64,000 bases of DNA from Procambarus clarkii (lineage: Eukaryota; Arthropoda; Malacostraca; Decapoda; Cambaridae). The stretch's first letter is position 1. Every line of letters begins with the position of its first letter. Where the stretch lies: contig NC_091154.1 in the NCBI RefSeq assembly GCF_040958095.1, positions 47,592,307 to 47,656,306 of the forward strand, in the 5' to 3' direction. The notes beneath the pieces were generated by a model, which had not been told where the DNA came from, made no database searches, and saw only the letters and a list, made by a program, of their open reading frames with translations. Made by a program: the position numbers and the translations under genes. Shown in pieces: positions 19,591 to 58,285 of the stretch.

Positions 19591-20003
19591 GATCTAAAAA
19601 AAACATATAAAATCAAATTCTTATTCGATCGATTTGGGGTTAGTATGAAAATGTTTGCCATTAAATTTCCGTTTTCTCTAATAGGCACCTGGCCTATTTG
19701 AGAAAACGGCATTGTATTGTAACTTAGAGGAGAGACTATTGAGTTGTTGACACAACGAGGGTAATCGCCCACTTCACACACTCTTGGTGTGGGCCGCGAT
19801 CATGATTCTACATTTATATGCATATGTCTGTTTAGGGAATGTTATTGCGAGGTCAGTGATATAAAATATAACGCTGTAGGACTAATGTGGAGCTGACAAC
19901 AAACAAAAGAGTATGAACATTTTGTTGCTGTTTGGGCGTCACGGCGAGTGATCTACGTTTTATTTATTTCGTGGTGGGATAGATAATGCTTTGGTGACAT
20001 GAG
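19591..20003. other. Unassigned sequence
   Basis: No repeat family, ORF or RNA gene recognised. Contains an inverted pair around CCGTTTTCTC and GAGAAAACGG at about 19671-19706. Confidence 0.4.
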
Positions 20004-20039
20004 AGAAGTGGCTGAGAAGTGCGTTCTGGCTACTAGGTA

Positions 20040-20094
<55 letters not shown>
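20004..20094. repeat. MITE terminal fragment and (AT)n tract
   Basis: 20004-20039 matches one end of the foldback MITE described at 20095-20483 (GCGTTCTGGCTACTAGGTAC). 20042-20094 is an (AT)n microsatellite. Confidence 0.8.
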
Positions 20095-20097
<3 letters not shown>

Positions 20098-20480
20098 GTA
20101 CCTAGTAGCCGGAACTCACTTCTCAGCCTACTATGCAAGGCCAAATTTGCCTAGTAAGCCAAGTTTTCATGAATTAATTGTTTTTCGACTACCTAACCTA
20201 CCTAACCTAACCTAACCTAACTTTTTCGGCTACCTAACCAAACCTAACCTATAAAGATAGGTTAGGGTAGGTTAGGTAGGGTTGGTTAGGTTCGGTCATA
20301 TATCTACGTTAATTTTAACTCCAATAAAAAAAAATTGACCTCATACATAATGAAATGGGTAGCTTTATCATTTCATAAGAAAAAAATTAGAAAAAATATA
20401 TTAATTCAGGAAAACTTGGCTTATTAGGCAAATCGGGCCTTGAATAGTAGGCCAAAAAGTGAGTTCTGGCTACTAGGTAC

Positions 20481-20483
<3 letters not shown>
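20095..20483. mobile_element. Foldback MITE, copy 1, in a TA tract
   Basis: 389 bp bounded by GTCGTACCTAGTAGCC and GGCTACTAGGTACGAC. Terminal inverted repeats are about 70 bp, including GCCTACTATGCAAGGCC and ATTTGCCTA. The centre holds CCTAA repeats facing TTAGG repeats (about 20200-20300). Flanked by (AT)n on both sides, so the target is TA-rich. No ORF. Three further copies lie in this window (20526, 27810, 47261). Confidence 0.85.
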
Positions 20484-20521
<38 letters not shown>

Positions 20522-20525
20522 ATAT
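20484..20525. repeat. (AT)n tract between MITE copies
   Basis: Alternating AT with a few interruptions (AAACATATG) directly joining the ends of two MITEs. Confidence 0.9.
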
Positions 20526-20923
20526 GTCGTACCTAGTAGCCAGAACGCATTTTTTGGCCAACTATGCAAGGCCCGATTTGCCTAATAGTCTGAGTGATTT
20601 TCTTTATTTTCAATAAATTGTTTCGAATTAGTTTATTTGAATTATTATTCTTATATTATATTAGGAACATAAGTTATTGACTTATTTGTGTTAGTTTAGG
20701 TTAGGTTAGGTTAGGTAAGGCTGGTTAAGTTCGGTCATATATCTATATTAGTTTTAACTCAAATTTCAACGAATTAATTTATATATATTGAAATGGTCAG
20801 ATTTATCATTTCATAAGAAAAAAAAATTAGAAAAAATATATAAATGCTGGAAAACTTTGCTTATTAGGCAAATCGGGCCTTGCATAGTAGGCTGAGTATG
20901 ACGTTCTGGCTACTAAGTACAAC
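20526..20923. mobile_element. Foldback MITE, copy 2
   Basis: Same termini as copy 1 (GTCGTACCTAGTAGCC and GGCTACTAAGTACAAC). The left interior is diverged (20585-20690) and only the TTAGG-oriented half of the telomere-like centre is clear (about 20697-20725). Flanked by TA-rich sequence. Confidence 0.8.
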
Positions 20924-20980
20924 ACACATATATATATATATACATATATATATTAGTATATTTTGGTAGCAGTCTTTCCT

Positions 20981-22690
20981 GTAGACATATATTATTAAAT
21001 ATGACCGAAAAAGTAAGATTAATAATTCTAACACGAATTTTCTCAATCTTTCGTACATTACGCTTCACTGTTGGAGGTAAATCAAAAATCACTTCTCCAA
21101 AATTCATTTTTATTTCTAGTCTGACGCGACACGGGCGCGTTTCGTAAAACTTATTACATTTTCAAAGACTTCACAAATACACAACTGATTAGAACTTACG
21201 TATCTCTGCTATTATATCTACATTTGAGTGAGGTGGGAGGGATGATGTGGCATATAGTGATGTGGCATTAACACAAGACAGAACATGAGGGGATATTAAT
21301 AGGGTATTAAAAGTATCAACACAAGACAGAACAGAAACAATGGGTATTGAATAGAAGTGTTTGTAGAAAGCCTATTGGTCCATATTTCTTGATGCTTCTA
21401 TATTGGAGCGGAGTCTTGAGGTGGGTAGAATATAGTTGTGCAATAATTGGCTGTTGATTGCTGGTGTTGACTTCTTGATGTGTAGTGCCTCGCAAACGTC
21501 AAGCCGCCTGCTATCGCTGTATCTATCGATGATTTCTGTGTTGTTTACTAGGATTTCTCTGGCGATGGTTTGGTTATGGGAAGAGATTATATGTTCCTTA
21601 ATGGAGCCCTGTTGCTTATGCATCGTTAAACGCCTAGAAAGAGATGTTGTTGTCTTGCCTATATACTGGGTTTTTTGGAGCTTACAGTCCCCAAGTGGGC
21701 ATTTGAAGGCATAGACGACGTTAGTCTCTTTTAAAGCGTTCTGTTTTGTGTCTGGAGAGTTTCTCATGAGTAGGCTGGCCGTTTTTCTGGTTTTATAGTA
21801 AATCGTCAGTTGTATCCTCTGATTTTTGTCTGTAGGGATAACGTTTCTATTAACAATATCTTTCAGGACCCTTTCCTCCGTTTTATGAGCTGTGGAAAAG
21901 AAGTTCCTGTAAAATAGTCTAATAGGGGGTATAGGTGTTGTGTTAGTTGTCTCTTCAGAGGTTGCATGGCTTTTCACTTTCCTTCTTATGATGCCTTCGA
22001 TGAAACCATTGGAGAAGCCGTTATTGACTAGAACCTGCCTTACCCTACAGAGTTCTTCGTCGACTTGCTTCCATTCTGAGCTGTGGCTGAGAGCACGGTC
22101 GACGTATGCGTTAACAACACTCCTCTTGTACCTGTCAGGGCAGTCGCTGTTGGCATTTAGGCACATTCCTATGTTTGTTTCCTTAGTGTAGACTGCAGTG
22201 TGGAAACCTCCGCCCTTTTCCATGACTGTTACATCTAGAAAAGGTAGCTTCCCATCCTTTTCCGTCTCGTAAGTGAAACGCAGCACGGAACTCTGCTCAA
22301 ATGCCTCCTTCAGCTCCTGCAGATGTCTGACATCAGGTACCTGTGTAAAAATGTCGTCAACATACCTGCAGTATATGGCCGGTTTCAAGTTCATGTCGAC
22401 TAAGACTTTTTGCTCGATGGTACCCATGTAGAAGTTTGCAAACAGGACACCTAGGGGAGAACCCATGGCGACCCCATCTACTTGCTTATACAAGTGCCCA
22501 TCCGGGCTCAAGAAGGGTGCCTCTTTAGTACAAGCTTGGAGTAGTTTCCTCAGAATACTTTCTGGCATGTCAAGAGGAGTACAGGCTGGATCACGATACA
22601 CTCTGTCGGCTATCATTCCGATTGTCTCGTCCACAGGTACGTTGGTAAACAGCGATTCTACGTCCAACGAGGCTCTTATCCCTGTGGCCC
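20981..22690 (-). mobile_element. Penelope-like element, left arm of inverted repeat
   Basis: Antisense 3-prime part of a Penelope-like element. Coding 21372-22690 reads from the RT core (LDVESLFTNVPVDETIG), through VDGVAMGSPLGVLFANFYMG and YCRYVDDIFT, to the GIY-YIG endonuclease (VVYAFKCPLGDC, then QYIGKTTTSLSRRL). GIY-YIG plus this RT is diagnostic of endonuclease-bearing Penelope-like elements. The RT N-terminus is absent. A longer frame continuing to 22913 is a chimera across the inversion. Its 3-prime end borders TA-rich DNA. Arm length equals 22994-24703 exactly. Confidence 0.92.
21118..21170 (-). ncRNA. Hammerhead-ribozyme-like motif in Penelope 3-prime flank (left arm)
   Basis: On the minus strand: stem I AGTCT/AGACT, core TTGAAAA, stem II GTAA/TTAC, GAAA, stem III CGCG/CGCG, then UC at the expected cleavage position. 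It is the mirror of 24514-24566, with the same two core deviations (C3 to U, G8 to A). Fold assigned by eye. Confidence 0.5.
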
Positions 22691-22705
22691 AGGGATAAGA
22701 GCCAG
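22691..22705. other. Templated filler at the Penelope inversion junction
   Basis: Between the antisense arm (ending CTGTGGCCC at 22690) and the sense copy (GGACTACAGCCGAATT onward) lies AGGGATAAGAGCCAG. Its first 13 bases are the reverse complement of GGCTCTTATCCCT at 22671-22683. This is the footprint of a polymerase copying back a few bases before switching template. Confidence 0.75.
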
Positions 22706-24901
<2,196 letters not shown>

Positions 24902-24934
24902 ATATCACGAAAATAAACACGTGATTAAGAATGT

Positions 24935-25089
24935 GACAATGTCAGACCACGAAGGAAAAATGAAACAGGAAATTTCCTTAAGTACTTTCGTATATTAAAT
25001 ACATCTTCACCTTCTGAAGATATATTTAATATACGAAAGTACTTAAGGAAATTTCCTGTTTCATTTTTCCTTCGTGGTCTGACATTGTC
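24935..25089. repeat. 75-bp-arm inverted repeat with 5-bp spacer
   Basis: Left arm 24935-25009 (GACAATGTCAGACCACG onward) and right arm 25015-25089 (ending CGTGGTCTGACATTGTC) are reverse complements apart from about one mismatch. TA tracts flank it (one directly, one within about 35 bp). Lies between two Penelope copies. Origin not recognised. Confidence 0.9.
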
Positions 25090-25106
25090 ATATATATATA
25101 TATATA

Positions 25107-27342
25107 TATTATTAAATATGACCGAAAAAGTAAGATTAATAATTCTAACACGAATTTTCTCGATCTTTCGTACATTTCTTTTCGCTGTTGGTGGTAATTC
25201 AAAAATCAATTCTACAAAATTCATTTTTATTTGTAGTCTGACGCGACACTTGAGCGCGTTTCGTAAAACTTATTACATTTTCAAAGGCTTTAGTTTACAC
25301 ACACACACACAACTTTAACTGAATAGAGCTTAAACATCTTTCGAGTTTTTATACCTACATTTATGTGAAGTGACATGTTACAATAGTTTTGGATGAGGTG
25401 AAAATAAACTTTTAACACAAGACAGAACACGAAACAATGAAATACAAACAGGTATTAAAGGTAGGTGACTGCAGAAGGCCTATTTTTATTGGCCCATATT
25501 TCTTGATGCTTCTATATTGGAGCGGAGTCTTGAAGTGGGTAGAATATAGTTGTGCATTAATTGGCTATTGATTGCTGGTGTTGACTTCTTGATGTGTAGT
25601 GCCTCGCAGACGTCGAGCCGCCTGCTATCGCTGTATCTATCGATGATTTCTGTGTTGTTTACTAGGATTTCTCTGGCGATGGTTTGGTTATAGGAAGAGA
25701 TTATGTGTTCATTAATGGAGCCCTGTTGCTTATGCATCGTTAAACGCCTAGAAAGAGATGTTGTTGTCTTGCCTATATACTGGTTTTTTTGGAGCTTACA
25801 GTCCCCAAGAGGGCATTTGAAGGCATAGACGACGTTGGTCTCTTTTAAAGCGTTCTGCTTTGTGTCTGGAGAGTTTCTTATGAGTAGGCTGGCCGTTTTT
25901 CTGGTTTTATAGTAAATCGTCAGTTGTATCCTGTGATTTTTGTCTGTAGGGATAACGTTTCTATTAACAATATCTTTCAGGACCCTTTCCTCCGTTTTAT
26001 GAGCTGTGGAAAAGAAGTTCCTGTAAAATAGTCTAATAGGGGGTATAGGTGTTGTGTTAGTTGTCTCTTCAGAGGTTGCATGGCGTTTCACTTTCCTTCT
26101 TATGATGTCTTCGACGAAACCATTGGAGAAGCCGTTGTTGACTAGGACCTGCCTTACCCGACAGAGTTCTTCGTCGACTTGCTTCCATTCTGAGTTGTGG
26201 CTGAGAGCACGGTCGACATATGCGTTAACAACACTCCTCTTGTACCTGTCTGGGCAGTCGCTGTTGGCATTTAGGCACAATCCTATGTTCGTTTCCTTAG
26301 TGTAGACTGCAGTGTGGAAACCTCCGCTCTTTTCCATGACTGTTACATCCAGAAAGGGCAGCTTCCCATCCTTTTCCATCTCGTAAGTGAAACGCAGCAC
26401 GGAACTCTGCTCAAACGCCTCCTTCAGCTCCTGCAGATGTCTGACATCAGGTACCTGTGTAAAAATGTCGTCAACATACCTGCAGTATATGGCCGGTTTC
26501 AAGTTCATGTCGACTAAGACTTTTTGCTCGATGGTACCCATGTAGAAGTTTGCAAACAGGACACCTAGGGGAGAACCCATGGCGACCCCATCTACTTGCT
26601 TATACATGTGCCCATCCGGGCTCAAGAAGGGTGCCTCTTTAGTACAAGCTTGGAGTAGTTTCCTTAGAATATTTTCTGGTATGTCAAGAGGAGTACAGGC
26701 TGGATCACGATACACTCTGTCGGCTATCATCCCGATTGTCTCGTCCACAGGTACGTTGGTGAACAGTGATTCTACGTCCAACGAGGCTCTTATCCCTGTG
26801 GCCCGTGTGCCCCGCAGTAAGTCAACAAATTCCTTTCGGGACTTCAGGCTGAAGGCGCAAGGGACATAAGGAGTCAGCAGGCCGTTGAGTCGTTTCGCCA
26901 GTCTGTACGTGGTTGTGGGTATCTGGCTAATGATTGGTCGAAGTGGGTTTCCAGGCTTGTGTGTCTTGACATTTCCATACGCATATCCAGGTTTATATTC
27001 CCCAATAATCTTTGGCAGGTGGAGTCCGGATTTCTTGGCGTTCACAGTTTCGATCAGTTTGTTGACCTTTGCTTTTAATTCGGCTGTAGTGTCCTTCGTT
27101 ACCCTTTGGAATTTAGTTTGGTCAGAGAGTATGAGGTTCATTTTCGCCAGATATTCGTCTTTTTTAAGAATGACATATATTGGCGACTTGTCGCCTCTCC
27201 TGACAACTATCTCCTTGTTCTCACGAAGGCTTTTAGCTGCCGCTTTGAGCTCGGGGGACAGTATGGTGCTTCTATAACTGCCTCGATTCTTTCCTCCTTC
27301 CGCAATAAGTTCTGCTTGTAAGGTATCTTTGGTAGTGACCTT
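25107..27342 (-). mobile_element. Penelope-like element, longest copy
   Basis: Antisense copy; open frame from 27375 down to the stop at 25486 (about 629 codons). Order of parts: N-terminal basic region with KGDKSPIYVILKKDEYLAK-like block (residues about 55-80), RT with GYAYGNVKTHKPGNPLRPI (about 130), LDVESLFTNVPVDE (about 195), VAMGSPLG (about 265) and YVDDIF (Asp pair at 302-303), then a C-terminal GIY-YIG endonuclease (QYIGKT, Tyr 533). The first codon of the frame is TTG inside an inverted junction; the first internal ATG is at 27141. The true N-terminus is therefore lost and the copy is probably incomplete. The RT and endonuclease look uninterrupted. Confidence 0.92.
25235..25289 (-). 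ncRNA. Hammerhead-ribozyme-like motif in Penelope 3-prime flank (third copy)
   Basis: Same layout as 24514-24566 on the minus strand. Stem III loop is 9 nt instead of 7, with both CGCG sides kept. Stem I has one mismatch (AGCCT against AGACT). The same C3-to-U and G8-to-A core changes are present. Confidence 0.45.
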
Positions 27343-27401
27343 CTTTTGTGTCTCGAGGTCGAAGGTCACTACCAAAGATACCTTATAAGCAGAACTTATT
27401 G
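27303..27401. repeat. Inverted repeat at the 5-prime end of the Penelope copy
   Basis: 27303-27342 and 27361-27401 are about 40-bp reverse complements (TTTGGTAGTGACCTTC against GAAGGTCACTACCAAA) around a spacer of about 18 bp. The element thus folds back on itself at its truncated 5-prime end. Confidence 0.85.
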
Positions 27402-27530
27402 CAAAAAGTTTTTTTGCTCCAGATGTTCGACTAGCTTTATTTGCACATTCTTTTTCATCATTTGGGATTTAATAATCGAAGTGTTAATAATAAGACACCT
27501 GGTGTTGCTCTTCTTTAGCTATTTCTTGCT

Positions 27531-27715: not shown

Positions 27716-27809
<94 letters not shown>
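27716..27809. repeat. (AT)n tract left of MITE copy 3
   Basis: Alternating AT of about 90 bp, ending at the MITE terminus. Confidence 0.95.
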
Positions 27810-27812
<3 letters not shown>

Positions 27813-28177
27813 ATACCTAGTAGCCAGAACTCACTTCTCAGCCTACTATGCAAGGCCCGATTTGCCTAATAAGCCATGTTTTCCTGAATTAATATATTTT
27901 CTCTAATTTTTTTCTTATGAAATGATAAAGCAACTCATTTCATTATGTATGAGGTCAATTTTTTTTAATTGGAGATAAAATTAAAGTAGATATATGACTG
28001 AACCTAACCAACCCTACCTTACCTAACCTAACCTATCTTTATAGGTTAGGTTAAGTTAGGTAGCCAAAAAAAGTTAGGTTAGGTAGACGAAAATACATTA
28101 ATTCATGAAAACTTGGCTTATTAGGCAAATCGGGCCTTGCATAGTAGGCTGAGAAGTGAGTTCTGGCTACTAGGTAC

Positions 28178-28180
<3 letters not shown>
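27810..28180. mobile_element. Foldback MITE, copy 3
   Basis: 371 bp from GTCATACCTAGTAGCC to GGCTACTAGGTACGAC, with long terminal inverted repeats. The central CCTAACCTAACCTA faces TTAGGTTAAGTTAGG (about 28010-28085). Bounded on both sides by (AT)n. Confidence 0.85.

Positions 28181-28259
<79 letters not shown>
28181..28259. repeat. (AT)n tract right of MITE copy 3
   Basis: About 79 bp of alternating AT. 28260-28690 after it is AT-rich with TGTTTACAGGTATA-type short repeats and no recognised gene. Confidence 0.95.
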
Positions 28260-30431: not shown

Positions 30432-31468
30432 CATGTTTGAGAAAAATTACTTGTGTGCACAAGCAAGTCTGTATTATTGCGTGCGTGTGCGTGTGCAAAC
30501 CTCCAGGTACTTATTGATTTTGTGTGGGTGGCGCGGCCGACACTGCCAGCTGCTGCACACTACGATAATCTTCACACACGCCCGTTCATGCATGGTGCCC
30601 CCTTCCTTGCCCCCCTTCAGGCATGTTGTCGCTCCTGCCCCCTTCAGGCATGTTGTCGCTCCTGCCCCCTTCAGGCATGTTGTCGCCCCTGCCCCCTTCA
30701 GGCATGTTGTCGCTCCTGCCCCCTTCAGGCATGTTGTCGCCACTGCCCCCTTCAGGCATGTTGTCGCTCCTGCCCCCTTCAGGCATGTTGTCGCCCCTGC
30801 CACCTTCAAGCATGTTGTCGCTCCTACCCCCTTCAGGCATGTTGTCGCTCCTGCCCCCTTCAGGCATGTTGTCGCCACTGCCCCCTTCAGGCATGTTGTC
30901 GCTCCTGCCCCCTTCAGGCATGTTGTCGCCACTGCCCCCTTCAGGCATGTTGTCGCTCCTGCCCCCTTCAGGCATGTTGTCGCCCCTGCCACCTTCAAGC
31001 ATGTTGTCGCTCCTGCCCCCTTCAGGCATGTTGTCGCCCCTGCCACCTTCAAGCATGTTGTCGCTCCTGCCCCCTTCAGGCATGTTGTCGCCCCTGCCAC
31101 CTTCAAGCATGTTGTCGCTCCTGCCCCCTTCAGGCATGTTGTCGCCCCTGCCACCTTCAAGCATGTTGTCGCTCCTGCCCCCTTCAGGCATGTTGTCGCC
31201 CCTGCCACCTTCAAGCATGTTGTCGCTCCTGCCCCCTTCAGGCATGTTGTCGCCCCTGCCACCTTCAACCATGTTGTCGCTCCTGCCCCCTTCAGGCATG
31301 TTGTCGCCACTGCCCCCTTCAAGCATGTTGTCGCTCCTGCCCCCTTCCGGCATGTTGTCGCCACTGCCCCCTTCAGGCATGTTGTCGCTCCTGCCCCCTT
31401 CAGGCATGTTGTCGCCACTGCCCCCTTCAGGCATGTTGTCGCTCCTGCCCCCTTCAGGCATGTTGTCG

Positions 31469-31990
31469 CCCCTGCCCCATTCAGGCATGTTGTCGCTCCT
31501 GCACCCTTCAGGCATGTTGTCGCCCCTGCCCTCTTCAGGCATGTTGTTGCCCCTGCCCCCTTCAAGCATGTTGTCGCTCCTGCCCCCATCAGGCATGTTG
31601 TCGCTCCTGCCCCCTTCAGGCATGTTGTCGCCCCTGCCCCATTCAGGCATGTTGTCGCTCCTGCACCCTTCAGGCATGTTGTCGCCCCTGCCCCCTTCAG
31701 GCATGTTATCGCCCCTGCCCCCTTCAAGCATGTTGTCGCTCCTGCACCCTTCAAGCATGTTGTCGCTCCTGCCCCCTTCAGGCATGTTGTCGCTCCTGCC
31801 CCCTTCAGGCATGTTGTCGCCCCTGCCCCATTCAGGCATGTTGTCGCTCCTGCACCCTTCAGGCATGTTGTCGCCCCTGCCCCCTTCAGGCATGTTGTCA
31901 CCCCTGCCCCCTTCAAGCATGTTGTCGCTCCTGCACCCTTCAAGCATGTTGTCGCTCCTGCCCCCTTCAGGCATGTTGTTTCCTCTGCCC
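31469..31990. repeat. Higher-order repeats of 162 and 189 bp inside the 27-bp array
   Basis: The variant series beginning CCCCTGCCCCATTC recurs at 31469, 31631 and 31820, that is 6 and 7 units of 27 bp apart, with the same order of variants (CACCCTTC, then CAAGCATG pairs). This shows expansion of multi-unit blocks. Confidence 0.85.
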
Positions 31991-32879
31991 CCTCAAGCAT
32001 GTTGTCGCTCCTGCCCCCTTCAGGCATGTTGTTTCCCCTGCCCCCTTCAGGCATGTTGTCGCTCCTGCCACCTTCAAGCATGTTGTCGCCACTGCCCCCT
32101 TCAGGCATGTTGTCGCCATTGCCCCCTTCAAGCATGTTGTCGCTCCTGCCCCCTTCAAGCATGTTGTCGCCCCTGCCCCCTTCAAGCATGTTGTCGCTCC
32201 TGCCCTCTTCAGGCATGTTGTCGCCCCTGCCCCCTTCAAGCATGTTGTCGCTCCTGCCCCCTTCAGGCATGTTGTCGCCCCTGCCCCCTTCAGGCATGTT
32301 GTCGCTCCTGCTCCCTTCAGGCATGGTGTCGCCCCTGCCCCCTTCAGGCATGTTGTCGCCCCGGCCCCCTTCAGGCATGTTGTCGCCCCTGCCCACTTCA
32401 GGCATGTTGTCGCCCCGGCCCCCTTCAGGCACGTTGTCGCCCCGGCCCCCTTCAGGCATGTTGTCGCAAATGCCCCCTTCAGGCATGTTGTTGCCTCTGC
32501 CCCCTTCAGGCATGTTGTCTCCCCTGCCCCCTTCAGGCATGTTGTCGCAACTGCCCACTTCAGGCATGTTGTCGTCCCAGCCCCCTTCAGGCATGTTGTT
32601 GCCCCTGCCCACTTCAGACATGTTGGTGCCTCTGCACCCTTCAGGCATGTTGTCGAGCATGTCCTCTCCAGGCATGTTGTCGCCTCTGCCCTCTTCAGGC
32701 ATGTTGTCTCCCCTGCCCCCTTCAGGCATGTTGTCGCCCCTGCCCCCTTTACGCATGTTGTCGCTCCTGCCCTCTTCAGGCATGTTGTTGCGCCTGCCTT
32801 CTTCAGGCATGTTGTCGCCCCTGCCCTCTTCAGGCATGTTGTCGCCTCTGCCCCCTTCAAGCATGTTGTCGTCCCAGCC

Positions 32880-33420
32880 GCCTTCAGGCATGTTGTCGCT
32901 CCTGCCCCCTTCAGGCATGTTGTCGCTCCTGCCCCCTTTTGGCATGTTGTCGCTCCTGGCCCCTTCAGGCATGTTGTCGCTCCTGCCCCCTTTAGGCATG
33001 TTGTCGCCCCTGCCTCCTTCAGGCATGTTGTCGCCCCTGCCCTCTTCAAGCATGTTGTCGACCCTGCCCTTCTTGAAGCATGTTGTCGCCCCTGCCCCCA
33101 TCAAGCATGTTGTCGCCCCTGCCCCCATCAAGCATGTTGTGGCACCTGCCCCCTTCAGGCATGTTGTCGCTCCTGCCCCCTTTTGGCATGTTGTCGCTCC
33201 TGGCCCCTTCAGGCATGTTGTCGCTCCTGCCCCCTTTAGGCATGTTGTCGCCCCTGCCTCCTTCAGGCATGTTGTCGCCCCTGCCCTCTTCAAGCATGTT
33301 GTCGACCCTGCCCTTCTTGAAGCATGTTGTCGCCCCTGCCCCCATCAAGCATGTTGTCGCCCCTGCCCCCATCAAGCATGTTGTGGCACCTGCCCCCTTC
33401 AAGCATGTTGTAACCCCTGC
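32880..33420. repeat. 244-bp segmental duplication inside the 27-bp array
   Basis: The run from CCCTTTTGGCATG through CCCTTCTTGAAGCATG to TTGTGGCACC occurs from about 32937 and again from 33181. Spacing is 244 = 9 x 27 + 1, the extra base coming from the CTTCTTGAAGC variant unit, so each copy shifts the reading phase by one. Confidence 0.85.
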
Positions 33421-36400
33421 CCCCTTAAAGCACGTTGTCGTTCCTGCCCCTTTAGGCATGTTGTCGCCCCTGCCCCCTTCATACATGTTGTCGACCATGC
33501 CCCCTTCAAGCATGCTGTCGCCCCTGCCCCCATCAAGCATGTTATGGCCCCTGCCCCCATCAAGCATGTTGTCGCTTCTGCCCCCATCAAGCATGTTGAA
33601 GCTCTTGCCCCTTTCAGGCATGTTGTCGCTCCTGCCCCCTTCAAGCATGTTGCCGTCCCTGCCCCCTTCAGGCAAGTTGTCGCCCCTGCCCCCATCAAGC
33701 ATGTTGTCGCCACTGCCCCCATCAAGCATGTTGTCGCCCCTGCCCCCTTCAGGCATGTTGTTGCTCCTGCCCCCTTCAGGCATGTTGTCGCCCCTGCCCC
33801 CATTAAGCATGTTGTGGCCCCTGCCCCCTTCAGGCATGTTGTCGCCCCTGCCCCTATCAAGTATGTTGTGGCCCCTGCCCCCTTCAGGCATGTTGAAGCT
33901 CCTGCCCCGTTCAGGCATGTTGAAGCTCCTGCCCCCTTCAAGCATGTTGTCGCCCCTGCCCCCTTCAAGCATGTTGTCGCCCTTGCCCCCTTCAGGCATG
34001 TTGAAGCTCCTGCCCCCTTCAGGCATGTTGAAGCTCCTGCCACCTTCAAGCATGTTGTCGCCCCTGCCCCCTTCAGGCATGTTGTCGCCCTAGCCCCCTT
34101 CAGGCATGTTGTCGCCCTTGCCCTCTTCAGGCATGTTGTTACCCCTGCCCTCTTCAGGTATGTTGTCGCCCCTGCCCCCTTTAGGCATGTTGTCGCCCCT
34201 GCCCTCTTCAGGGATGTTGTCGCTCCTGCTCTCTTCAGACATGTTGTCGCCCGTGCCCACTTCAGGCATTTTGTCGCCCCTGCCCACTTCAGGCATGTTG
34301 TCGCCCGTGCCCACTTCAGGCATGTTGTCGCCCCTGCCCTCTTCAAGCATGTTGTCGCTCCTGCCCTCTTCAGACATGTAGTCGCCCGTGCCCACTTCAG
34401 GCATATTGTCGCCTGTGCCCACTTCACGCATGTTGTCGCCCCTGCCCCCTTCAGGCATGTTGTCGACCCTGCCCTCTTCAGGCATGTTGCGGCCCCTGCC
34501 CTCTTCAGGCATGTTGTCGCCTCTGCCCTCTTCAGGCATGTTGTCGCTCCTGCCTTGTTCAGGCATGTTGTTGCGCCTGCCCTCTTCAGGCATGTTGTCG
34601 CCTCTGCCCCCTTCAGGCATGTTGTCACTCCTGCCCTCTTCAGGCATGTTGTCGGTCTTGCTCTCTTCAGGCATGATGTCACTCCTGCCCCCTTCAGGCA
34701 TGTTGCCGCTCCTGCCCCCTTCAGGCATGTTGTCGCCCCTGCCCCCTTCAGGCATGTTGTCGCCCCTGCCCCCTTCATGCATGTTGTCGCTATTGCCCCC
34801 TTAAGGCATGTTGTCGCCCCTGCCACCTTCAAGCATGTTGCCGCCCCTGCCCCCTTCAGGCATGTTGTCGCCCCTGCCCACTTCAGGCATGTTTTCGCCA
34901 CTGCCCCCTTAATGCATGTTGTCGCCCCTGCCCCTTCAGGCATGTTGTCGCCCCTGCCCCCTTCAAGCATGTTGTCGACCCTGCCCCCTTCAAGCATGTT
35001 GTCGACCCTGCCCCCATCAAGCATGTTGTTGCCCCTGCCCCCATCAAGCATGTTGTGGCACCTGCCCCCTTCAAGCATGTTGTGGCCCTTGCCCCCTTCA
35101 AGCACGTTGTCGTTCCTGCCCCTTCAGGCATGTTGTCGCCCCTGCAACCTTCAAACATGTTGTCGACCCTGCCCCCTTCAAGCATGCTGTCCTCCCTGCC
35201 CCCATCAAGCATGTTGTGGCCCCTGCCCCCTTCAAGCACGTTGTCGTTCCTGCCCCTTCAGGCATGTTGTCGCCCCTGCCCCCTTCAAAAATGTTGTCGC
35301 CCCTGCCCCCTTCAGGCATGTTGTTGCCCCTGCCCCTATCAAGCATGTTGTCGCCCCTGCCCCCATCAAGCATGTTGAAGCTCCTGCCCTCTTCAGGCAA
35401 GATGTCACCCCTGCCCCCATCACGCATGTTGTCGCCCCTGCCCCCTTCAAGCATGTCGTCGCTACTGCCCTCTTCAGGCATGATGTTGCCCCTGCCCTCT
35501 TCAGGCATGTTGTCGCCACTGCCCGATTCAGGCATGTTTTCGCTCCTGCCATCTTCAGGGATGTTGTCGCTCCTGCTCTCTTCAGGCATGTTGTCGCTTC
35601 TGCTCTCTTCAGGCATGTTGTCGCCCCTGCCTCCTTCAGGCATGTTGTCGTCCCAGCCCCCTTCAGGCATGTTTGTCGCCCCTGCCCTCTTCAGGCATGT
35701 TGATGCTCCTGCTCTCTTCAAGCATGTTGTCGCTCCTGCTCTCTTCATGCATGTTGTCGCCCCTGCCCTTTTCAGGCATGTTGTCGCCCCTGCCCACTTC
35801 AGGCATGCTGTCGCCCCTGCCCACTTCAGGCATGTTGTCGCCCGTGCCCACTTAAGGCATGTTGTCGCCCCTGCCCTCTTCAGGCATGCTGTCGCCCGTG
35901 CCCACTTCTGGAATGTTGTCGCCCCTGCCCTCTTCAGGCATGTTGTCGACCCTGCCCTCTTCAGGCATGTTGTCGTTCCTGCCCCCTTCAGGATGTTGTC
36001 GCTCTTGCCCCCTTCAAGCAAGTTGTCGCCCCGGCCCCCTTCAAGCATGTTGTGGACCATAACCCCTTCAAGCATGTTGTCGCCTTTGCCCCCATCAAGC
36101 ATGTCGAAGCTCCTGCCTCCTTCAGGCATGTTGTCGCCCCTGCTCGCTTCAGGCATGTTGTCGTTCCTGCCCCCTTAAGGCATGTTGTCGCCACTGCCCC
36201 CTTAAGGCATGTTGTCGCCCCTGCCCCCTTCAGGCATGTTGTCGACCCTGCCCTCTTCAGGCATGTTGTCGCCACTGCCCCCTTCAGGCATGTTGTCGCC
36301 CCTGCCCTCTTCAGGCATATTGTCGCTCCTGCGCTCTTCAGGCAAGTTGTCGCCCCTGCCCCTTCAGGCATGTTGCCGCCCCTGCCGTCTTCAGGAATGT

Positions 36401-39400
36401 TGTCGCTCCTGCTCTCTTCAGGCATGTGTTCGCTCCTGCCCTCTTCAGGCATGTTGTCGCTCCTGCTCTCTTCAGGCATGTTGTCGCCCCTGCCCCCTGC
36501 AGGCATGTTGTCGTCCCAGCCCCCTTCAGGCATGTTGTCGCTCCTGCCCTCTTCAGACATGTTGTCGTCCCTGCCCCCTTCAGGCATGTTGTCGTCCCAG
36601 CCCCAATTCAGGCATGTTGTCGCCCCTGCGCTCTTCAGGCATGTTGTCGTCCCAGCCCCCTTCAGGCATGTTGTCGCCCCTGCTCTCTTCAGGCATGTTG
36701 TCGTCCCTGCCCCCTTAAGGCATGTTGTCGTCCCAGCTCCCTTCAGGCATGTTGTCGCTCCTGCTCTCTTCAGGCATGTTGTCGCTCCTGCCCCTTTCAG
36801 GCATGTTGTCGCCCCTGCTCTCTTCAGGCATGTTGTCGTCCCAGCCCCCTTCAGGCATGTTGTCGCTCCTGCCCTCTTCAGACATGTTGTCGTCCCTGCC
36901 CCCTTCAGGCATGTTGTCGTCCCAGCCCCCTTCAGGCATGTTGTCGTCCCAGTCCCTTTCAGGCATGTTGTCGTCCCAGCCCCCTTCAGGCATGTTGTCG
37001 TCCCAGCCCCCTTCAGGCATGTTGTCGCTCCTGCTCTCTTCAGGCATGTTGTCGCTCCTGCCCCCTTCAGGCATGTTGTCGCCCCTGCTCTCTTCAGACA
37101 TGTTGTCGTCCCTGCCCACTTCAGGCATGTTGTCGTCCCTGCCCCCTTCAGTCATGTTGTCGTCCCAGCCCCCTTCAGGCATGTTGTCGTCCCAGACCCC
37201 CTTCAGGCATGTTGTCGCTCCTGCCCTCTTCAGACATGTGTTCATCCCTGCCCCCTTCAGGCATGTTGTCGTCCCAGCCCCCTTCAGGCATGTTGTCGTC
37301 CCAGCCCCCTTCAGGCATGTTGTCGTCCCAGCCCCCTTCAGGCATGTTGTCGCTCCTGCTCTCTTCAGGCATGTTGTCGCTCCTGCTCTCTTCAGGCATG
37401 TTGTCGCTCCTGCTCTCTTCAGGCATGTTGTCGCTCCTGCTCTCTTCAGGCATGTTGTCGCTCCTGCTCTCTTCAGGCATGTTGTCGCTCCTGCTCTCTT
37501 CAAGCATGTTGTCGTCCCAGCCCCCTTCAGGAATGTTGTCGCTCCTGCCCTCTTCAGACATGTTGTCGTCCCAGCCCCCTTCAGGCATGTTGTCGTCCCA
37601 GCCCCCTTCAGGCATGTTGTCGCCACTGCTCTCTTCAGGCATGTTGTCGCCCCTGCGCTCTTCAGGCATGTTGTCACCCGTGCCCACTTCAGGCATGTTG
37701 TCGCCTGTACCCACTTTAGGCATGTTGTCGCCCCTGACCCCTTCAGGCATGTTGTCGGCCCTGCCCTCTTCAGGCATGTTGTCGTTCCTGCCCCTTTCAG
37801 GCATGTAGTCGCTCCGGCCCCCTTCAGGCATGTTGTCGCTCCTGCCCCCTTCAGGCATGTTGTCGCTCCTGCCCCCTTCAGGCATGTTGTCGCTTCTGCC
37901 TCCTTCAGGTATGTTGTCGCCCCTGCCCCCTTCAAGCATGTTGTCGTCCCAGCCCCCTTCAACCATGTTGTCGCTCCTGCCCCCTTCAGGCATGTTGTCG
38001 TTCCTGCCCCCTTCAGGCATGTTGTCGCTCCTGCCCCCTTAAGGCATGTTGTCGACCTTGCCCCTTCAGGCATATTGTCGTTCCTGCCCCCTTCAGTCAT
38101 GTGGTCAACCTGCCCTCTTTAGGCATGTTGTCGCTCTTGCGCTCTTCACGCACGTTGTCGCCCGCGCCTACTTCAGGAATGTTGTCGCTCCTGCCCCCTT
38201 CAGGACATGTTGTCGCCCCTGCCCTCTTCAGGCATGTTGTCTCCACTGCTCTCTTCAGGCATGTTGTCGCTCCTGCTCTATTCAGGCATGTTGTCGCCCC
38301 TGTCCCCTTTCAGGCAAGTTGTCGTCCCAGCCCCCTTCAGGCATGTTGTCGCCCCTGCCCTCTTCAGGCATGTTGTCGCTCCTGCTCTCTTCAGGCATGT
38401 TGTCGCCCGTGCCCCCTTCAGGCATGTTGTCGCCCGTGGCCACTTCAGGCATGTTGTCGCCCCTGCCCACTTCAGGCATGTTGTCGTCTCAGCCCCCTTC
38501 AAGCATGCTGTCGCCCCTGCTCTCTTCAGGCATGTAGTCGCTCCTGCCCTCTTCAGGCATGTTGTCGCTCCTGCGCTCTTCAGGCATGTTGTCGCCCGTG
38601 CCCACTTCAGGCATGTTGTCGACCCTGCCCCCTTCAAGCATGCTGTCGCCCCTGCCCCCATCAAGCATGTTGTCGCCCCTGCCCCCATCAAGCATGTTGT
38701 GGCCCCTGCCCTCATCAAGCATGTTGTGGCCCCTGCCGCTTTCATGCATGTTGTCGTTCCTGCCCCGTTTAGGCATGTTGTCGCCCCTGCCCCCTCCAGG
38801 CATGTTGTTGCTCCTGCCCCCTTCAGGCATGTTGTCGCCCCTGCCCCCTTCAGGCATGTTGTCGCTCCTGCCCCCTTCAGGTATGTTGTTGCTCCTGCCC
38901 CCTTCAGGCATGTTGTAGCCCCTGCCCCCTCCAGGCATGTTGTCGCTCCTGCCCCCTTCAGGTATATTGTTGCTCCTGCCCCCTTCAGGCATGTTGTCGC
39001 CCCTGCCCCCTTCAGGCATGTTGTCGCTCCTGCCCCTTTCAGGTATGTTGTTGCTCCTGCCCACTTCAGGCATGTTGTCGCCCGTGCCCACTTAAGGCAT
39101 GTTGTCGCCCCTGCCCCCTTCAGGCAAGTTGTCGCCCCTGCCCCCTTCAATCATGTTGTCGACCCTGCCCCCTTCAAGCATGCTGTCGCCCCTGCCCCCA
39201 TCAAGCATGTTGTCGCCCCTGCCCCCATCAAGCATGTTGTGGCCCCTGCCATCATCAAGCATGTTGTGGCCCTTGCCCCTTTCATGCAAGTTGTCGTTCC
39301 TGCCCCCTTTAGGCATGTTGTCGCCTTTGCCCCCTCCAGGCATGTTGTCGCTCCTGCCCCCTTCAGGTATGTTGTTGCTCCTGCCCCTTCAGGCATGTTG

Positions 39401-42072
39401 TCGCCCCTGCCTCCTTCTGGCATGTTGTCGCTCCTGCCCCCTTCAGGTATGTTGTTGCTCCTGCCCCCTTCAGGCATGTTGTCGCCCCTGCCCCCTTCAG
39501 GCATGTTGTCGCCCCTACCCCCTTCAGGCATGTTGTCGCTCCTGCCCCCTTCAGGTATGTTGTTGCTCCTGCCCCCTTCAGGCATGTTGTCGCTCCTGCC
39601 CCCTTCAGGTATGTTGTTGCTCCTGCCTCCTTCAGGCATGTTGTCGCTTCTGCCTCCTTCAGGCATGTTGTCGCTCCGGCTAGCTGCCCCCTTCATGCAT
39701 GTTGTCGTCTCAGCCCCCTTCAGGCATGTTGTCGCTCCTGCCCCCTTCAGGCATGTTGTCGCTCCTGCCCCCTTAAGGCATGTGTTCGCCCCTGCCACCT
39801 TCAGGCATATTGTCGCACCTGCCCTCTTCAAGCATGTTGTCGTCCCAGCCCCCTTCAGGCATGTTGTCGCTCCTGCTCCCTTCAGGCATGTTGTCGCTCC
39901 TGTCCCCTTAAGATATGTGTTCGCCCCTGCCACCTTCAGGCATATTGTCGCCCCTGCCCTCTTCAAGCATGTTGTCGTCCCAGCCCCCTTCAGACATGTT
40001 GTCGCTCCTGGCCCCTTCAGGCATGTTGTCGCCACTGCCCCCTTGAAGCATGGTGTCGACCCTGCCTCCTGCAAGCATGTTGTCGCCCCTGCCACCTTCA
40101 AGCATGTTGTCGCCCCTGCCCCCTTCAGGCATGTTGTCGCCCTTGCCCCCTTCAGGCATGATGTCGCTCCTGCCCTCTTCAGGCATGTTGTTGCCCTTGC
40201 CCCCTTCAAGCATGTTGTCGTCCCAGCCGCCTTCAGGCATGTTGTCGCTCCTGTCCTCTTCAGGCATGTTGTTGTCCCTGCCCCCTTCAAGCATGTTGTC
40301 GTCCCAGCCGCCTTCAGGCATGTTGTCGCTCCAGCCCCCTTCAGGCATGTTGTCGCTCCTGCCCCCTTTTGGCATGTGGTCCCCCCTGCCACCTTCAAGC
40401 ATGTTGTCGACCCTGCCCCCTTCAGGCATATTGTCGCCCCTGCCCTCTTCAAGCATCTTGTCGTCCCAGCCCCCTTCAGACATGTTGTCGCTCCTGGCCC
40501 CTTCAGGCATGTTGTCGCTACTGCCCCCTTAAGGCATGTTTTCGCTACTGCCCCCTTTAGGCAAGTTGTCGCCCCTGCCCCCTTCAAGCATGCCGTCGCC
40601 CCTGCCCCCTTCAAGCATGTTGTCGCTCCTGCCCCCTTCAAGCATGTTGTCGTCCCAGCCGCCTTCAGGCATGTTGTCGCTCCTGCCCCCTTCAGGCTTG
40701 TTGTCGCTCCTGCCCCCTTTTGGCATGTTGTCGCTCCTGGCCCCTTCAGGCATGTTGTCGCTACTGCCCCCTTAAGGCATGTTGTCGCCCCTGCCACCTT
40801 TAGGCAAGTTATCGCCCCTGCCCCCTTCAGGCATGTTGCCATCCCAGCCCACTTCAGACATGTTGTCGCTCCTGGCCCCTTCAGGCATGTTGTCGCTACT
40901 GCCCCCTTAAGGCATGTTGTCGCTACTGCCCCCTTCAGGCATGTGGTCGCCCCTGCCACCTTTAGGCAAGTTGTCGCCCCTGCCCCCTTCAAGCATGTCG
41001 TCGCCCCTGCCCCCTTCAAGCATGTTGTCGTCCCTGCCACCTTCAAGCATGTTGTCGTCCCTGCCCCTTTCAGGCATGTTGTCGCTCCTGCTCTCTTCAG
41101 GCATGTTGTCGCTCCGGCTCTCTTCAGGCATGTAGTCGCCCCTGTCCCCTTCAGGCATGTTGTCATCCCAGCCCCCTTCAGGCATGTTGTCGCCCCTGCC
41201 CACTTCAGTCATGTTATCGACCCTGCCCTCTTCAGGCATGTTGTCGCTCCTACTCTCTTCAGGCATGTTGTCGCTTTTGCTCTCTTCAGGCATGTTGTCG
41301 CCTCTGCCCTTTTCAGGCATGTTGTCATCCCAGCCCCCTTCAGGCATGTTGTCGCCGATGCCCTCTTCAGGCATGTTGTCGCTCCTGCCCTCTTCAGGCA
41401 TGTAGTCGCTCCTGCCCCTCTTCAGGCATGTTGTCGCTCCTGCGCTCTTCAGGCATGTTGTCGTCCCTGCCCCCTTCAGGCATGTAGTCGCTCCTGCCCC
41501 TCTTCAGGCATGTTGTCGCTCCTGCCCTCTTCAGGCATGTTGTCGCTCCTTCCCACTTCAGGCATGTTGTCGCTCCTGCTCTCTTCAGGCATGTTGTCGC
41601 TTTTGCTCTCTTCAGGCATGTGGTCGCCTCTGCCCTTTTCAGTCATGTTGTCGTCCCAGCCACCTTCAGGCATGTTGTCGCCCCTGCCCCCTTCAGGGAT
41701 GTTGTCGACCCTGCCCTCTTCAGGCATGTTGTCGCTCCTGCCCCCTTCAGGCATGTAGTCGCTCCTGCCCTCTTCAGGCATGTTGTCGCTCCTGCCCTCT
41801 TCAGTCATGTTGTCACTCCTGCCCCCTTGAAGCATGTTGAAGCTCCTGCCCCCTTCAGGCATGTTGTCGCTCCTGCCCCCTTCAGGCATGTTGTCGCCCC
41901 TGCCCAATTCAGGCATGTTGTCGCTTCTGCCTCCTTCAGGCATGTTGTCGCTCCGGCTAGCTGCCCCCTTCAAGCATGTTGTCGTCCCAGCCCCCTTCAG
42001 GCATGTTGTCGTCCCAGCCCTCTTCTGGCATGTTGTCGCTCCTGCCCGCTTCAGGCATGTTGTCGCCCTGCA

Positions 42073-42603: not shown

Positions 42604-45600
42604 TATTGGATGCGTATAGGGTCCAATACCACCTGTTAGGTGGGTAAGGGGTCCAATACCACCCGCAGGATGGGTATAGGGGTCACATCCACCCACAGGA
42701 TGGATATGGGGATCACTTCCACCCACAGGAAGGGTATGGGGTCCAATACCATCCACTGGATGTGTATGGCGTCCACTACCACCCACAGGATGGGTATGGG
42801 GCTCCAACCACCCACAGAATAAGTATGGGGTCCAATAACACCCACTGGATGTGTATGGCGTCCATTGCCGCCCACAGGATGAGTATAGGGTCCAGTATAG
42901 CCAACAGGATTAGTTTATAGGGTCCACTGCCGCCCACAGGGTCGGTAGGGGGTCCAATACCGCCCACAGGGTTGGTAGGGGGGTCCAATACCGCCCACAG
43001 GGTCGGTATGGGGTCCACTGCCACCCACATGGTCGGTATTGGGTCCACTGCCACCCACAGGGTCGGTATGGGGTCCACTGCCACCCACATGGTCGGTATG
43101 GGGTCCACTACCGCCCACAGGGTCGGTAGGGGTCCACTGCCGCCCACAGGGTCGGTAGGGGGTCCACTGCCGCCCACAGGGTCGGTAGGGGGTCCACTGC
43201 CGCCCACAGGGTCGGTAGGGATCCACTACCGCCCACAGGGTCGGTAGGGCGTCTACTACCTCCCACAGGGTCGGTAGGGATCCACTACCGCCCACAGGGT
43301 CGGTAGGGGTCCACTACCGCCCACAGGGTCGGTAGGGATCCACTGCCGCCCACAGGGTCGGTAGGGGGTCCACTGCCGCCCACAGGGTCGGTAGGGATCC
43401 ACTACCGCCCACAGGGTCGGTAGGGGTCCACTGCCGCCCACAGGGTGTGTAGGGGGTCAACTGCCGCCCACAGGGTCGGTAGGGATCCACTACCGCCCAC
43501 AGGGTCGGTAGGGGGTCCACTGCCGCCCACAGGGTCGGTAGGGGGTCCACTGCTGCCCACAGGGTCGGTAGGGATCCACTGCCGCCCACAGGGTCGGTTG
43601 GGGTCCACTACCGCCCACAGGGTTGGTAGGGGGTCCACTGCCGCCCACAGGGTCGGTAGGGGGTCCACTACCGCCCACAGGGTGGGTAGGGGTCCACTGC
43701 CGCCCACAGGGTCGGTAGGGGGTCCACTACCGCCCACAGGGTTGGTAGGGGGTCCACTGCCGCCCACAGGGTCGGTAGGGGTCCACTACCGCCCACAGGG
43801 TCGGTAGGGGTCCACTGCCGCCCACAGGGTCGGTAGGGGGTCCACTACCGCCCACAGGGTCGGTAGGGGTCCCGTACTGCCGCCCACAGGGTCGGTAGGG
43901 GGTCAACTGCCGCCCACAGGGTCGGTAGGGATCCACTGCCGCCCACAGGGTCGGTAGGGACCCACTACCGCCCACAGGGTTGGTAGGGGGTCAACTGCCG
44001 CCCACAGGGTCGGTAGGGATCCACTACCGCCCACAGGGTTGGTAGGGGGTCAACTGCCGCCCACAGGGTCGGTAGGGATCCACTACCGCGCACAGGGTCG
44101 GTAGGGGTCCACTGCCGCCCAAAGGGTCGGTAGGGGGTCCACTGCCGCCCACAGGGTCGGTAGGGAGCCACTACCGCCCACAGGGTTGGTAGGGGGTCAA
44201 CTGCCGCCCACAGGGTCGGTAGGGGTCCACTACCGCCCACAGGGTCGGTAGGGGGTCAACTGCCGCCCACAGGGATGGTAGGGGGTCAACTGCCGCCCAC
44301 AGGGTCGGTAGGGCGTCCACTACCTCCCACAGGGTCGGTAGGGATCCACTACCGCCCACAGGGTCGGTAGGGGGTCCACTACCGCCCACAGGGTCGGTAG
44401 GGGGTCCACTACCGCCCACAGGGTCGGCAGGGGGTCCACTACCGCCCACAGGGTCGGTAGGGGGTCCACTACCGCCCACAGGGTCGGTAGGGGGTCCACT
44501 ACCGCCCACAGGGTCGGTAGGGATCCACTACCGCCCACAGGGTCGGTAGGGATCCACTACCGCCCACAGGGTCGGCAGGGTGTCCACTACCGCCCACAGG
44601 GTCGGTAGGGGGTCCACTACCGCCCACAGAGTCGGTAGGGGGTCCACTACCGCCCACAGGGTCGGTAGGGAGTCCACTGCCGCCCACAGGGTCGGTAGGG
44701 GGTCCACTGCCGCCCACAGGGTCGGTAGGTGGTCCACTGCCGCCCACAGGGTCGGTAGGGATCCACTACCGCCCACAGGGTCGGTAGGGATCCACTACCG
44801 CCCACAGGGTCGGCAGGGTGTCCACTACCGCCCACAGGGTCGGTAGGGGGTCCACTACCGCCCACAGGGTCAGTAGGGGGTCCACTACCGCCCACAGGGT
44901 TGGTAGGGGGCCAACTGCCGCCCACAGGGTCGGTAGGGGTCCACTACCGCCCACAGGGTCGGTAGGGGGTCAACTGCCGCCCACAGGGTTGGTAGGGGGT
45001 CAACTGCCGCCCACAGGGTCGGTAGGGCGTCCACTACCTCCCACAGGGTCGGTAGGGATCCACTACCGCCCACAGGGTCGGTAGGGGGTCCACTACCGCC
45101 CACAGGGTCGTTAGGGGGTCCACTACCGCCCACAGTGTCGGCAGGGGGTCCACTGCCGCCCACAGGGTCGGCAGGGGGTCCACTACCGCCCACAGGGTCG
45201 GTAGGGGGTCCACTACCGCCCACAGGGTCGGTAGGGGGTCCACTACCGCCCACAGGGTCGGTAGGGATCCACTACCGCCCACAGGGTCGGTAGGGATCCA
45301 CTACCGCCCACAGGGTCGGCAGGGTGTCCACTACCACCCACAGGGTCGGTAGGGGGTCCACTACCGCCCACAGAGTCGGTAGGGGGTCCACTACCGCCCA
45401 CAGGGTCGGTAGGGGGTCCACTGCCGCCCACAGGGTCGGTAGGGGGTCCACTGCCGCCCACAGGGTCGGCAGGGGGTCCACTACCGCCCACAGGGTCGGT
45501 AGGGGGTCCACTACCGCCCACAGGGTCGGTAGGGGGTCCACTACCGCCCACAGGGTCGGTAAGGGGTTCACTGCCACGCACAGGGTCGGTAGGGGGTCCA

Positions 45601-47130: not shown

Positions 47131-47260
47131 GGGTGTGTCTGGGGTCTATTTTTTTCTGTATAGCAGAGGTGGCAATACTGCTTTTCCAATCTCAATTGTT
47201 GTTCAATGTAAAATATTTGTTGCTCGACTTCCAACAATTTATATATATATATATATATAT

Positions 47261-58182: not shown

Positions 58183-58285
58183 ACCATTAAGTTTATTTTA
58201 CTTTAGAATTTTTAATCTACTTTTTTCTTTGTTTTCTATTTTGTAATTTGCCATTCTTGCCTTGTTTTCCTGCAAACAGCCTTTT
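58036..58285. other. Junction between tandem LINE A copies
   Basis: Pyrimidine-rich, including 31 consecutive T near 58150-58180. Similarity to the ORF1-ORF2 spacer of the first copy becomes visible at about 58220. The exact start of the second copy was not determined. Confidence 0.5.

What the first reader, a model, noticed from the sequence alone, without database searches (positions are those of the whole stretch)
21118..25289. Hammerhead-ribozyme-like fold conserved after three Penelope-like ORFs
Seen: the same ordered elements (AGTCT, TTGAAAA, GTAA..TTAC, GAAA, CGCG..CGCG, UC, AGACT) at 24514-24566 (+), 21118-21170 (-) and 25235-25289 (-). In the third copy the stem III loop changes length from 7 to 9 nt while both stem sides are kept, as expected for a structured RNA. 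Known: hammerhead motifs have been reported in Penelope-like elements. Odd: all copies have U at core position 3 and A at position 8, a change that keeps potential pairing but removes the usual G8 general acid. This is either a dead ancestor that was copied or a divergent hammerhead. The first two copies are near-identical, so there are effectively two independent observations.
Basis: partly seen in the sequence, partly recalled or inferred. Interest (0 to 1): 0.72.

Follow-up and report, generated by a model that had tools for sequence, protein, structure and literature searches.

The report
Hammerhead-like leader of Penelope retrotransposon copies
Three copies of one kind of jumping gene carry, just before its likely protein start, a short RNA that resembles a known self-cutting ribozyme; such ribozymes are already known at this spot in this kind of jumping gene, its odd core pair is a known natural variant, and whether it still cuts is untested.

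Summary
The motif is present at all three places. Copies 1 and 2 are one observation: an inverted duplicate, identical over 392 nt. Copy 3 was misread: its stem I arm is AGCCT, leaving a C·A mismatch. The ORFs are Penelope-like (reverse transcriptase supported, GIY-YIG weak). The motif ends 10 nt before an ATG whose frame stays open to the element's end; the tails end about 121-128 nt into it. This fits the published Anolis Penelope, with a hammerhead at the pLTR-ORF junction and reverse transcription starting 111-118 nt inside the ORF. So a hammerhead is expected here. U3/A8 is not new: U3-A8 covariation is reported in natural hammerheads, covarying pairs are active in vitro, and the proposed general acid is the 2'-OH of residue 8, not its base. 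Against an active ribozyme: no Rfam hammerhead hit, one extra U in the core, a more stable competing fold (far more in copy 3), no compensatory change, divergence not significantly below the ORF's synonymous divergence. The whole genome could not be searched (tool unreachable, 11 tries). Verdict: ordinary Penelope hammerhead-like motif, perhaps weak or decaying.

The parts
24514..24566 (+). Hammerhead-like motif, copy 1: stem I 24514-24518/24562-24566, core UUGAAAA 24519-24525 (U3, A8), extra U 24526, stem II 24527-24530/24537-24540, G12-A13-A14 24541-24543, stem III 24544-24548/24556-24560, C17 24561; predicted cut after 24561
   Evidence: numbering assigned by me from the published consensus core
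21118..21170 (-). Copy 2, identical to copy 1 (inverted duplicate)
25235..25289 (-). Copy 3: stem I arm AGCCT (C·A mismatch), stem III loop 9 nt; core identical
24577..24704 (+). Tail of copy 1: likely start of the Penelope reading frame ([39 protein letters not shown]), running into the AT microsatellite; copies 1 and 2 match each other up to 24704 (frame offset 128)
25104..25224 (-). Tail of copy 3 ([39 protein letters not shown]); after 8 differing codons among the first 21 it is identical to copy 1 up to frame offset 121, then AT repeats
22699..24312 (+). Penelope-like ORF, 5' truncated, upstream of copy 1 (RVT_1 28.2 bits, just under cut-off 29.6)
21372..22690 (-). Penelope-like ORF remnant upstream of copy 2, 5' truncated at the inverted junction (one search lists the open frame as 21372-22928, which runs on into the other copy); not scanned against Pfam
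25486..27468 (-). Penelope-like ORF upstream of copy 3: RVT_1 29.7 bits (cut-off 29.6), GIY-YIG 19.2 bits (cut-off 22.6); about the first 55 codons lie in or before a 42-nt inverted repeat
24313..24513 (+). pLTR segment between ORF stop and motif; only 62% identical to its counterpart in copy 3 (aligned columns)

Best explanation
The motif is the type I hammerhead-like element of a Penelope-like retrotransposon family, lying in the pseudo-LTR immediately before the likely start of its ORF. It appears after the ORFs because, as reported for the Anolis element, reverse transcription of tandem Penelope RNA starts inside the next unit's ORF, so each inserted copy ends with pLTR + hammerhead + the first 120 or so nt of the ORF ('tail'). 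Inferred function: cleavage (in cis, as a dimer, or helped by protein) of read-through Penelope RNA after C17, 15 nt before the ATG, making a unit 5' end. The core carries the known U3-A8 alternative to C3-G8 plus one extra U before stem II. Copies 1 and 2 could be weakly active; copy 3, with a broken stem I pair and a much more stable competing fold, is probably inactive. Shown: sequence anatomy, position, tail ends, close relation of the copies. Inferred: that ATG 24577 is the ORF start, the fold in vivo, cleavage, role.
For: Reverse transcriptase domain in the two ORFs scanned and a weak GIY-YIG match at the C terminus of one. ATG 24577 opens a frame directly after the motif, shared by both independent copies. 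Tails end near frame offset 128 (copies 1/2) and 121 (copy 3) in AT repeats, against RT start sites at 111-118 nt and AT-rich targets in PAc (PMC11167929). PAc has its hammerhead at the pLTR-ORF junction; reviews state that Penelope elements carry minimal type I hammerheads in their pLTRs. 10 of the 12 specified core positions counted here (3, 4, 5, 6, 8, 9, 12, 13, 14, 15.1, 16.1, 17) agree, and the two that differ are a known covarying pair. Shuffle controls.
Against: No Rfam match at gathering scores in the window, and no hammerhead family up to E 10 in 4.6 kb holding all copies or in 101 nt around copy 1. The lowest-energy fold is a different hairpin in all 4 stretches folded (two per independent copy), and none is markedly more stable than its shuffles (z -0.53 to -1.18). 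Hammerhead fold -9.6 vs -11.1 kcal/mol in copy 1 (pair probabilities 0.33-0.46); in copy 3 -7.6 with the C·A pair counted, -4.1 with it open, vs -12.1 (probabilities at most 0.016). No compensatory change; one stem change is disruptive. 3 of 64 substitutions is compatible with the synonymous divergence (P 0.24 at rate 0.08). Extra U in the core. A stem III of 5 pairs is unlike most Penelope motifs, said to lack helix III. GIY-YIG is under its cut-off. With looser stems, chance hits occur in 9 of 60 shuffled windows.
Confidence: 0.8

Rival explanations
1. A sub-case of the same origin rather than a separate one (so the odds overlap with the best explanation): the motif descends from a Penelope hammerhead but is dead in this whole family. 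U3/A8, the extra U and the competing hairpin came with loss of self-cleavage, and the segment now serves only as 5' leader or is neutral.
For: No Rfam hammerhead hit; competing fold preferred; stem I broken in copy 3; divergence compatible with synonymous sites; in PAc, hammerhead mutants still insert in vitro.
Against: U3-A8 is a pairing, known natural variant; all three stems are intact in copies 1 and 2; PAc's hammerhead shows no cleavage without protein, so weak folding alone is not proof of death.
Confidence: 0.45
2. A chance resemblance in an A/T-rich leader: the conserved piece is really the competing hairpin AGUUU.ACG..ACGC / GUGU..CGU.AGACU, for example a binding site for the Penelope protein.
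For: This hairpin is the lowest-energy fold in both independent copies, and copy 3 keeps all of it while losing a hammerhead pair; relaxed descriptor hits occur in 9 of 60 shuffled windows (4/4/4 stems).
Against: The position is that of known Penelope hammerheads; the hairpin is not markedly more stable than shuffles expect (z -0.53 to -1.18); a core match of 10 of 12 with a covarying remainder is not explained.
Confidence: 0.12
3. A hammerhead of a non-autonomous retrozyme inserted into the elements.
For: Retrozymes with type I hammerheads are reported in many animals, crustaceans included (PMC7229834 passages).
Against: No tandem array other than the AT microsatellite around the motif at score 300 or more; the motif is joined to the same reading frame in both independent copies.
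Confidence: 0.02

Closest known systems
Hammerhead motif of the Anolis Poseidon/Penelope element PAc (PMC11167929; text parts 1 and 2 of 4 and passages seen)
   Same: Penelope-like element; hammerhead at the pLTR-ORF junction; insertions end shortly inside the ORF (RT starts at 111-118 nt there, tails end at about 121-128 nt here); AT-rich targets
   Different: PAc keeps C3 and G8, its ORF starts at stem II and its cut site is 26 bp inside the ORF; here U3-A8, the AUG at stem II is followed at once by UAA, and the cut site would lie 15 nt before the next ATG
Minimal type I hammerheads of Penelope-like elements (Cervera and de la Pena 2014; Lunse et al. 2017; both not held, known here only through citations and reviews PMC6155905 and PMC7761336, passages)
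   Same: Type I layout, in pLTRs, short open stem I
   Different: Usually described as lacking helix III; here stem III has 5 pairs with a 7-9 nt loop
Natural U3-A8 hammerhead core variants (PMC3088659; passages and section 8 seen)
   Same: Same covarying pair at positions 3 and 8
   Different: Genomic context and stems not compared here; the text I saw does not name those examples

Membership tests
Penelope-like element | Reverse transcriptase domain | tested here: met
   RVT_1 29.7 bits, cut-off 29.6, in the 25486-27468 ORF; 28.2 in the 22699-24312 ORF, just under. Pfam's RVT_1 does not itself tell Penelope from other reverse transcriptases
Penelope-like element | C-terminal GIY-YIG endonuclease | tested here: inconclusive
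   PF01541 E 0.0015, 19.2 bits, cut-off 22.6, in the copy 3 ORF
Penelope-like element | pLTR flanks and a tail ending inside the ORF start | tested here: inconclusive
   Downstream segment and tails ending at frame offset 128 and 121; no copy here has an upstream pLTR, all being 5' truncated, so the repeat and the ORF start are inferred
Hammerhead ribozyme | Core C3 U4 G5 A6 N G8 A9 / G12 A13 A14 / A15.1-U16.1 / H17, with positions 3 and 8 pairing | tested here: inconclusive
   10 of 12 positions match; 3 and 8 are U and A, a known natural covariant; one extra U between A9 and stem II
Hammerhead ribozyme | Three stems around the core | tested here: inconclusive
   5/4/5 pairs in copies 1 and 2; copy 3 has a C·A mismatch in stem I
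Hammerhead ribozyme | Compensatory changes in the stems (supporting, not defining) | tested here: not met
   None between the two independent copies; only 3 substitutions in 64 nt, so little power
Hammerhead ribozyme | Score against Rfam hammerhead models (supporting, not defining) | tested here: not met
   No hammerhead family up to E 10 nor at gathering scores; no positive control with a Penelope hammerhead was run
Hammerhead ribozyme | Self-cleavage after H17 | not testable with these tools
   Needs bench work

The most novel reading that the evidence does not exclude
A Penelope family that has fixed a U3-A8 hammerhead core with an extra base before stem II and a stable stem III, still working (alone, as a dimer or with its protein), with the whole ribozyme moved into the leader ahead of a re-set start codon.
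Probability: 0.25. Interest if true: 0.4.

Novelty: new member of a known kind. Interest (0 to 1): 0.2.

Why it matters
Hammerheads are reported as a standing part of Penelope elements, yet their role there is described as unknown. A family with a variant core, if active, would help separate what the ribozyme must keep from what it can lose, and the tails here fit the internal reverse-transcription start seen in vitro for the Anolis element. As it stands the finding is one more instance, not a surprise.

Tried and rejected
Relatives: exact motif patterns in genome contigs and viral contigs, 0 matches; the Penelope protein in both, 0 confirmed relatives (6 stretches in viral contigs and 16 in genome contigs matched a pattern and were not confirmed by tblastn); a tail pattern in viral contigs, 0; the ORF DNA against plasmids by megablast, no match. 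These collections hold prokaryotes, viruses and plasmids, so this says little about animals. No covariance model was built: only two distinct, very close sequences are at hand.

Considered and rejected: a shifted core reading (U·G as first stem II pair), because it loses G12 and A15.1-U16.1 (by eye); a coding explanation of the motif itself, because the 2-nt indel in loop III shifts the frame between copies and the frame upstream of the ATG holds stops in both; conservation of the motif as proof of function, because its divergence is not significantly below the synonymous level. The contrast with the upstream pLTR (66 substitutions in 172 aligned columns against 3 in 64, Fisher P 4e-8) shows only that the upstream pLTR is a different or much older module, and that part of the alignment is itself poor. 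Literature: hammerhead ribozyme with C3U or G8A gave 1 unrelated paper; hammerhead + U3-A8 and hammerhead + Penelope + crayfish gave 0; Penelope, hammerhead ribozyme, decapod, any two showed 10 of 49, none on a decapod Penelope hammerhead by title and abstract start. Not held: Cervera and de la Pena 2014, Lunse et al. 2017, Przybilski and Hammann 2007 (recalled to test all Watson-Crick pairs at 3-8).

Full report
What is there. The window holds three copies of a Penelope-like element close together: 20.98-22.69 kb (-), 22.70-24.70 kb (+) and 25.10-27.47 kb (-). The first two are an inverted duplicate, 99.6% identical over 1711 nt, joined 5' end to 5' end near 22.69 kb. The third is related: over 537 aligned codons the ORFs of copies 1 and 3 differ at 54 of 1611 nt, dS 0.086, dN/dS 0.23, so the lineage was coding under selection. 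Of the two ORFs scanned, the copy 3 ORF reaches the RVT_1 cut-off (29.7 bits, cut-off 29.6) and the copy 1 ORF falls just under it (28.2). GIY-YIG is matched weakly and below its cut-off. All copies are 5' truncated; a search with the pLTR and tail of copy 1 finds no further pLTR in the window beyond these three, so no upstream pLTR is seen.

The motif. Copies 1 and 2 read AGUCU-UUGAAAA-U-GUAA(UAAGUU)UUAC-GAA-ACGCG(CCCGUGU)CGCGU-C-AGACU. Copy 3 differs by AGCCU in stem I and by a 9-nt stem III loop.

Is it chance? A strict descriptor fitted to the motif: 0 hits in 300 shuffles. A descriptor allowing for choices I could have made: mean 0.033 hits per shuffled window (2 of 60 with a hit) with 5/4/5 stems, 0.18 (9 of 60) with 4/4/4. 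So the motif alone would be moderate evidence. By my arithmetic from the first figure, a zone of 300 nt on one strand would hold such a hit roughly once in 10,000; this ignores that the stem lengths were chosen after seeing the motif. Position is the stronger argument.

Position. The motif ends at 24566 and an ATG follows at 24577. Its frame stays open into the microsatellite and is shared by copy 3, with 4 synonymous and 4 replacement codon changes among the first 40 codons. Copies 1 and 2 match each other up to frame offset 128, and copy 3 matches copy 1 up to offset 121 before running into AT repeats. In the Anolis element PAc, the hammerhead sits at the pLTR-ORF junction, AT-rich DNA is cut, and reverse transcription starts 111-118 bp inside the ORF, which explains the genomic tails (PMC11167929). 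The agreement is close, not exact. It explains why the motif lies 'after' the ORFs: it is the leader of the next unit, caught in the tail. That this ATG is the true ORF start is inferred, because no full copy is in the window.

The core oddity. A review gives the 2'-OH of G8 as the likely acid and G12 as base (PMC6155905, passages); the start of the abstract of PMC11300833, seen in a listing, says that a pseudoknot-containing hammerhead is more sensitive to loss of the G8 2'-OH than to loss of magnesium. PMC3088659 section 8 states that C3 and G8 covary to U3 and A8 in several natural hammerheads and that covarying pairs were already shown active in vitro. In PAc the swapped C3G/G8C pair partly restores cleavage. 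So the change is compatible with a hammerhead and is not new. An extra base between A9 and stem II is not covered in the passages I saw; that section reports low activity for an insertion after A6 and suggests that an insertion in the GAAA part may be tolerated.

Evidence against an active ribozyme. Rfam finds no hammerhead at gathering scores or up to E 10. The lowest-energy fold is another hairpin in all 4 stretches folded, and no stretch is markedly more stable than its shuffles (z -0.53 to -1.18). The hammerhead fold is 1.5 kcal/mol worse in copy 1 (pair probabilities 0.33-0.46). In copy 3 it is 4.5 worse even when the C·A pair is scored as paired and 8.0 worse when it is open (probabilities at most 0.016). 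Such programs do not score the core's tertiary pairs, so copy 1 stays open; copy 3 is probably dead. There is no compensatory change, and 3 substitutions in 64 nt are not significantly fewer than synonymous divergence predicts (P 0.24 at rate 0.08, 0.11 at 0.10). The sharp drop to 62% identity upstream of the motif points to a different or older pLTR module and cannot be used as proof of constraint.

Known or new. Reviews state that Penelope elements in general carry minimal type I hammerheads in their pLTRs, role unknown, and that such elements coexist with retrozymes in the animals analysed. This is therefore a new instance of a known kind. Differences worth a line: U3-A8 core, a 5-pair stem III with self-complementary CGCG arms where most Penelope motifs are said to lack helix III, and a start codon that lies after the ribozyme rather than at stem II as in PAc (an AUG does stand at stem II here but is followed at once by UAA). 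Membership in the hammerhead class stays unproven; that this is the homologue of the Penelope hammerhead rests on position and core.

Limits. The decisive test, many genomic copies, could not be run: the genome search was unreachable in all 11 tries, and the other collections gave no relatives. The source organism was not established.

Noticed in passing
20980-22690 (-) and 22994-24704 (+): Near-identical 5'-to-5' inverted duplicate of a 5'-truncated Penelope copy, 99.6% over 1711 nt, junction near 22694.
   Followed up: partly
27302-27402: 42-nt inverted repeat (98%) with 17 nt between at the 5' end of the third Penelope copy; the N-terminal part of that ORF reads through it.
   Followed up: partly
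24525-24533: In the motif an AUG stands at the start of stem II (where the Anolis ORF begins) but is followed at once by UAA UAA; perhaps a relic of an older start codon.
   Followed up: no
24930-25090: Near-perfect foldback (by eye) between two Penelope copies; gives a sub-gathering microRNA match in Rfam (mir-1277 43.8 bits, gathering 81), probably only because it is a long hairpin.
   Followed up: no
30611-42068: 27-nt minisatellite, about 424 copies, open in many frames on both strands (ORFs up to 1771 codons), probably not a gene.
   Followed up: no
42639-47134: 30-nt satellite, about 151 copies, also reported with a 238-nt period.
   Followed up: no
20000-20960 and 27800-28200: Several dispersed repeats with ends like GTTCTGGCTACTAGGTACGACATAT and CAAGGCCCGATTTGCCTAAT around AT microsatellites, in both orientations (seen by eye).
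   Followed up: no
54731-57733 and 58247-61193: Non-LTR retrotransposon ORF of 1000 codons with endonuclease and reverse transcriptase domains, followed by a similar copy split over two overlapping frames (by eye; not scanned).
   Followed up: no
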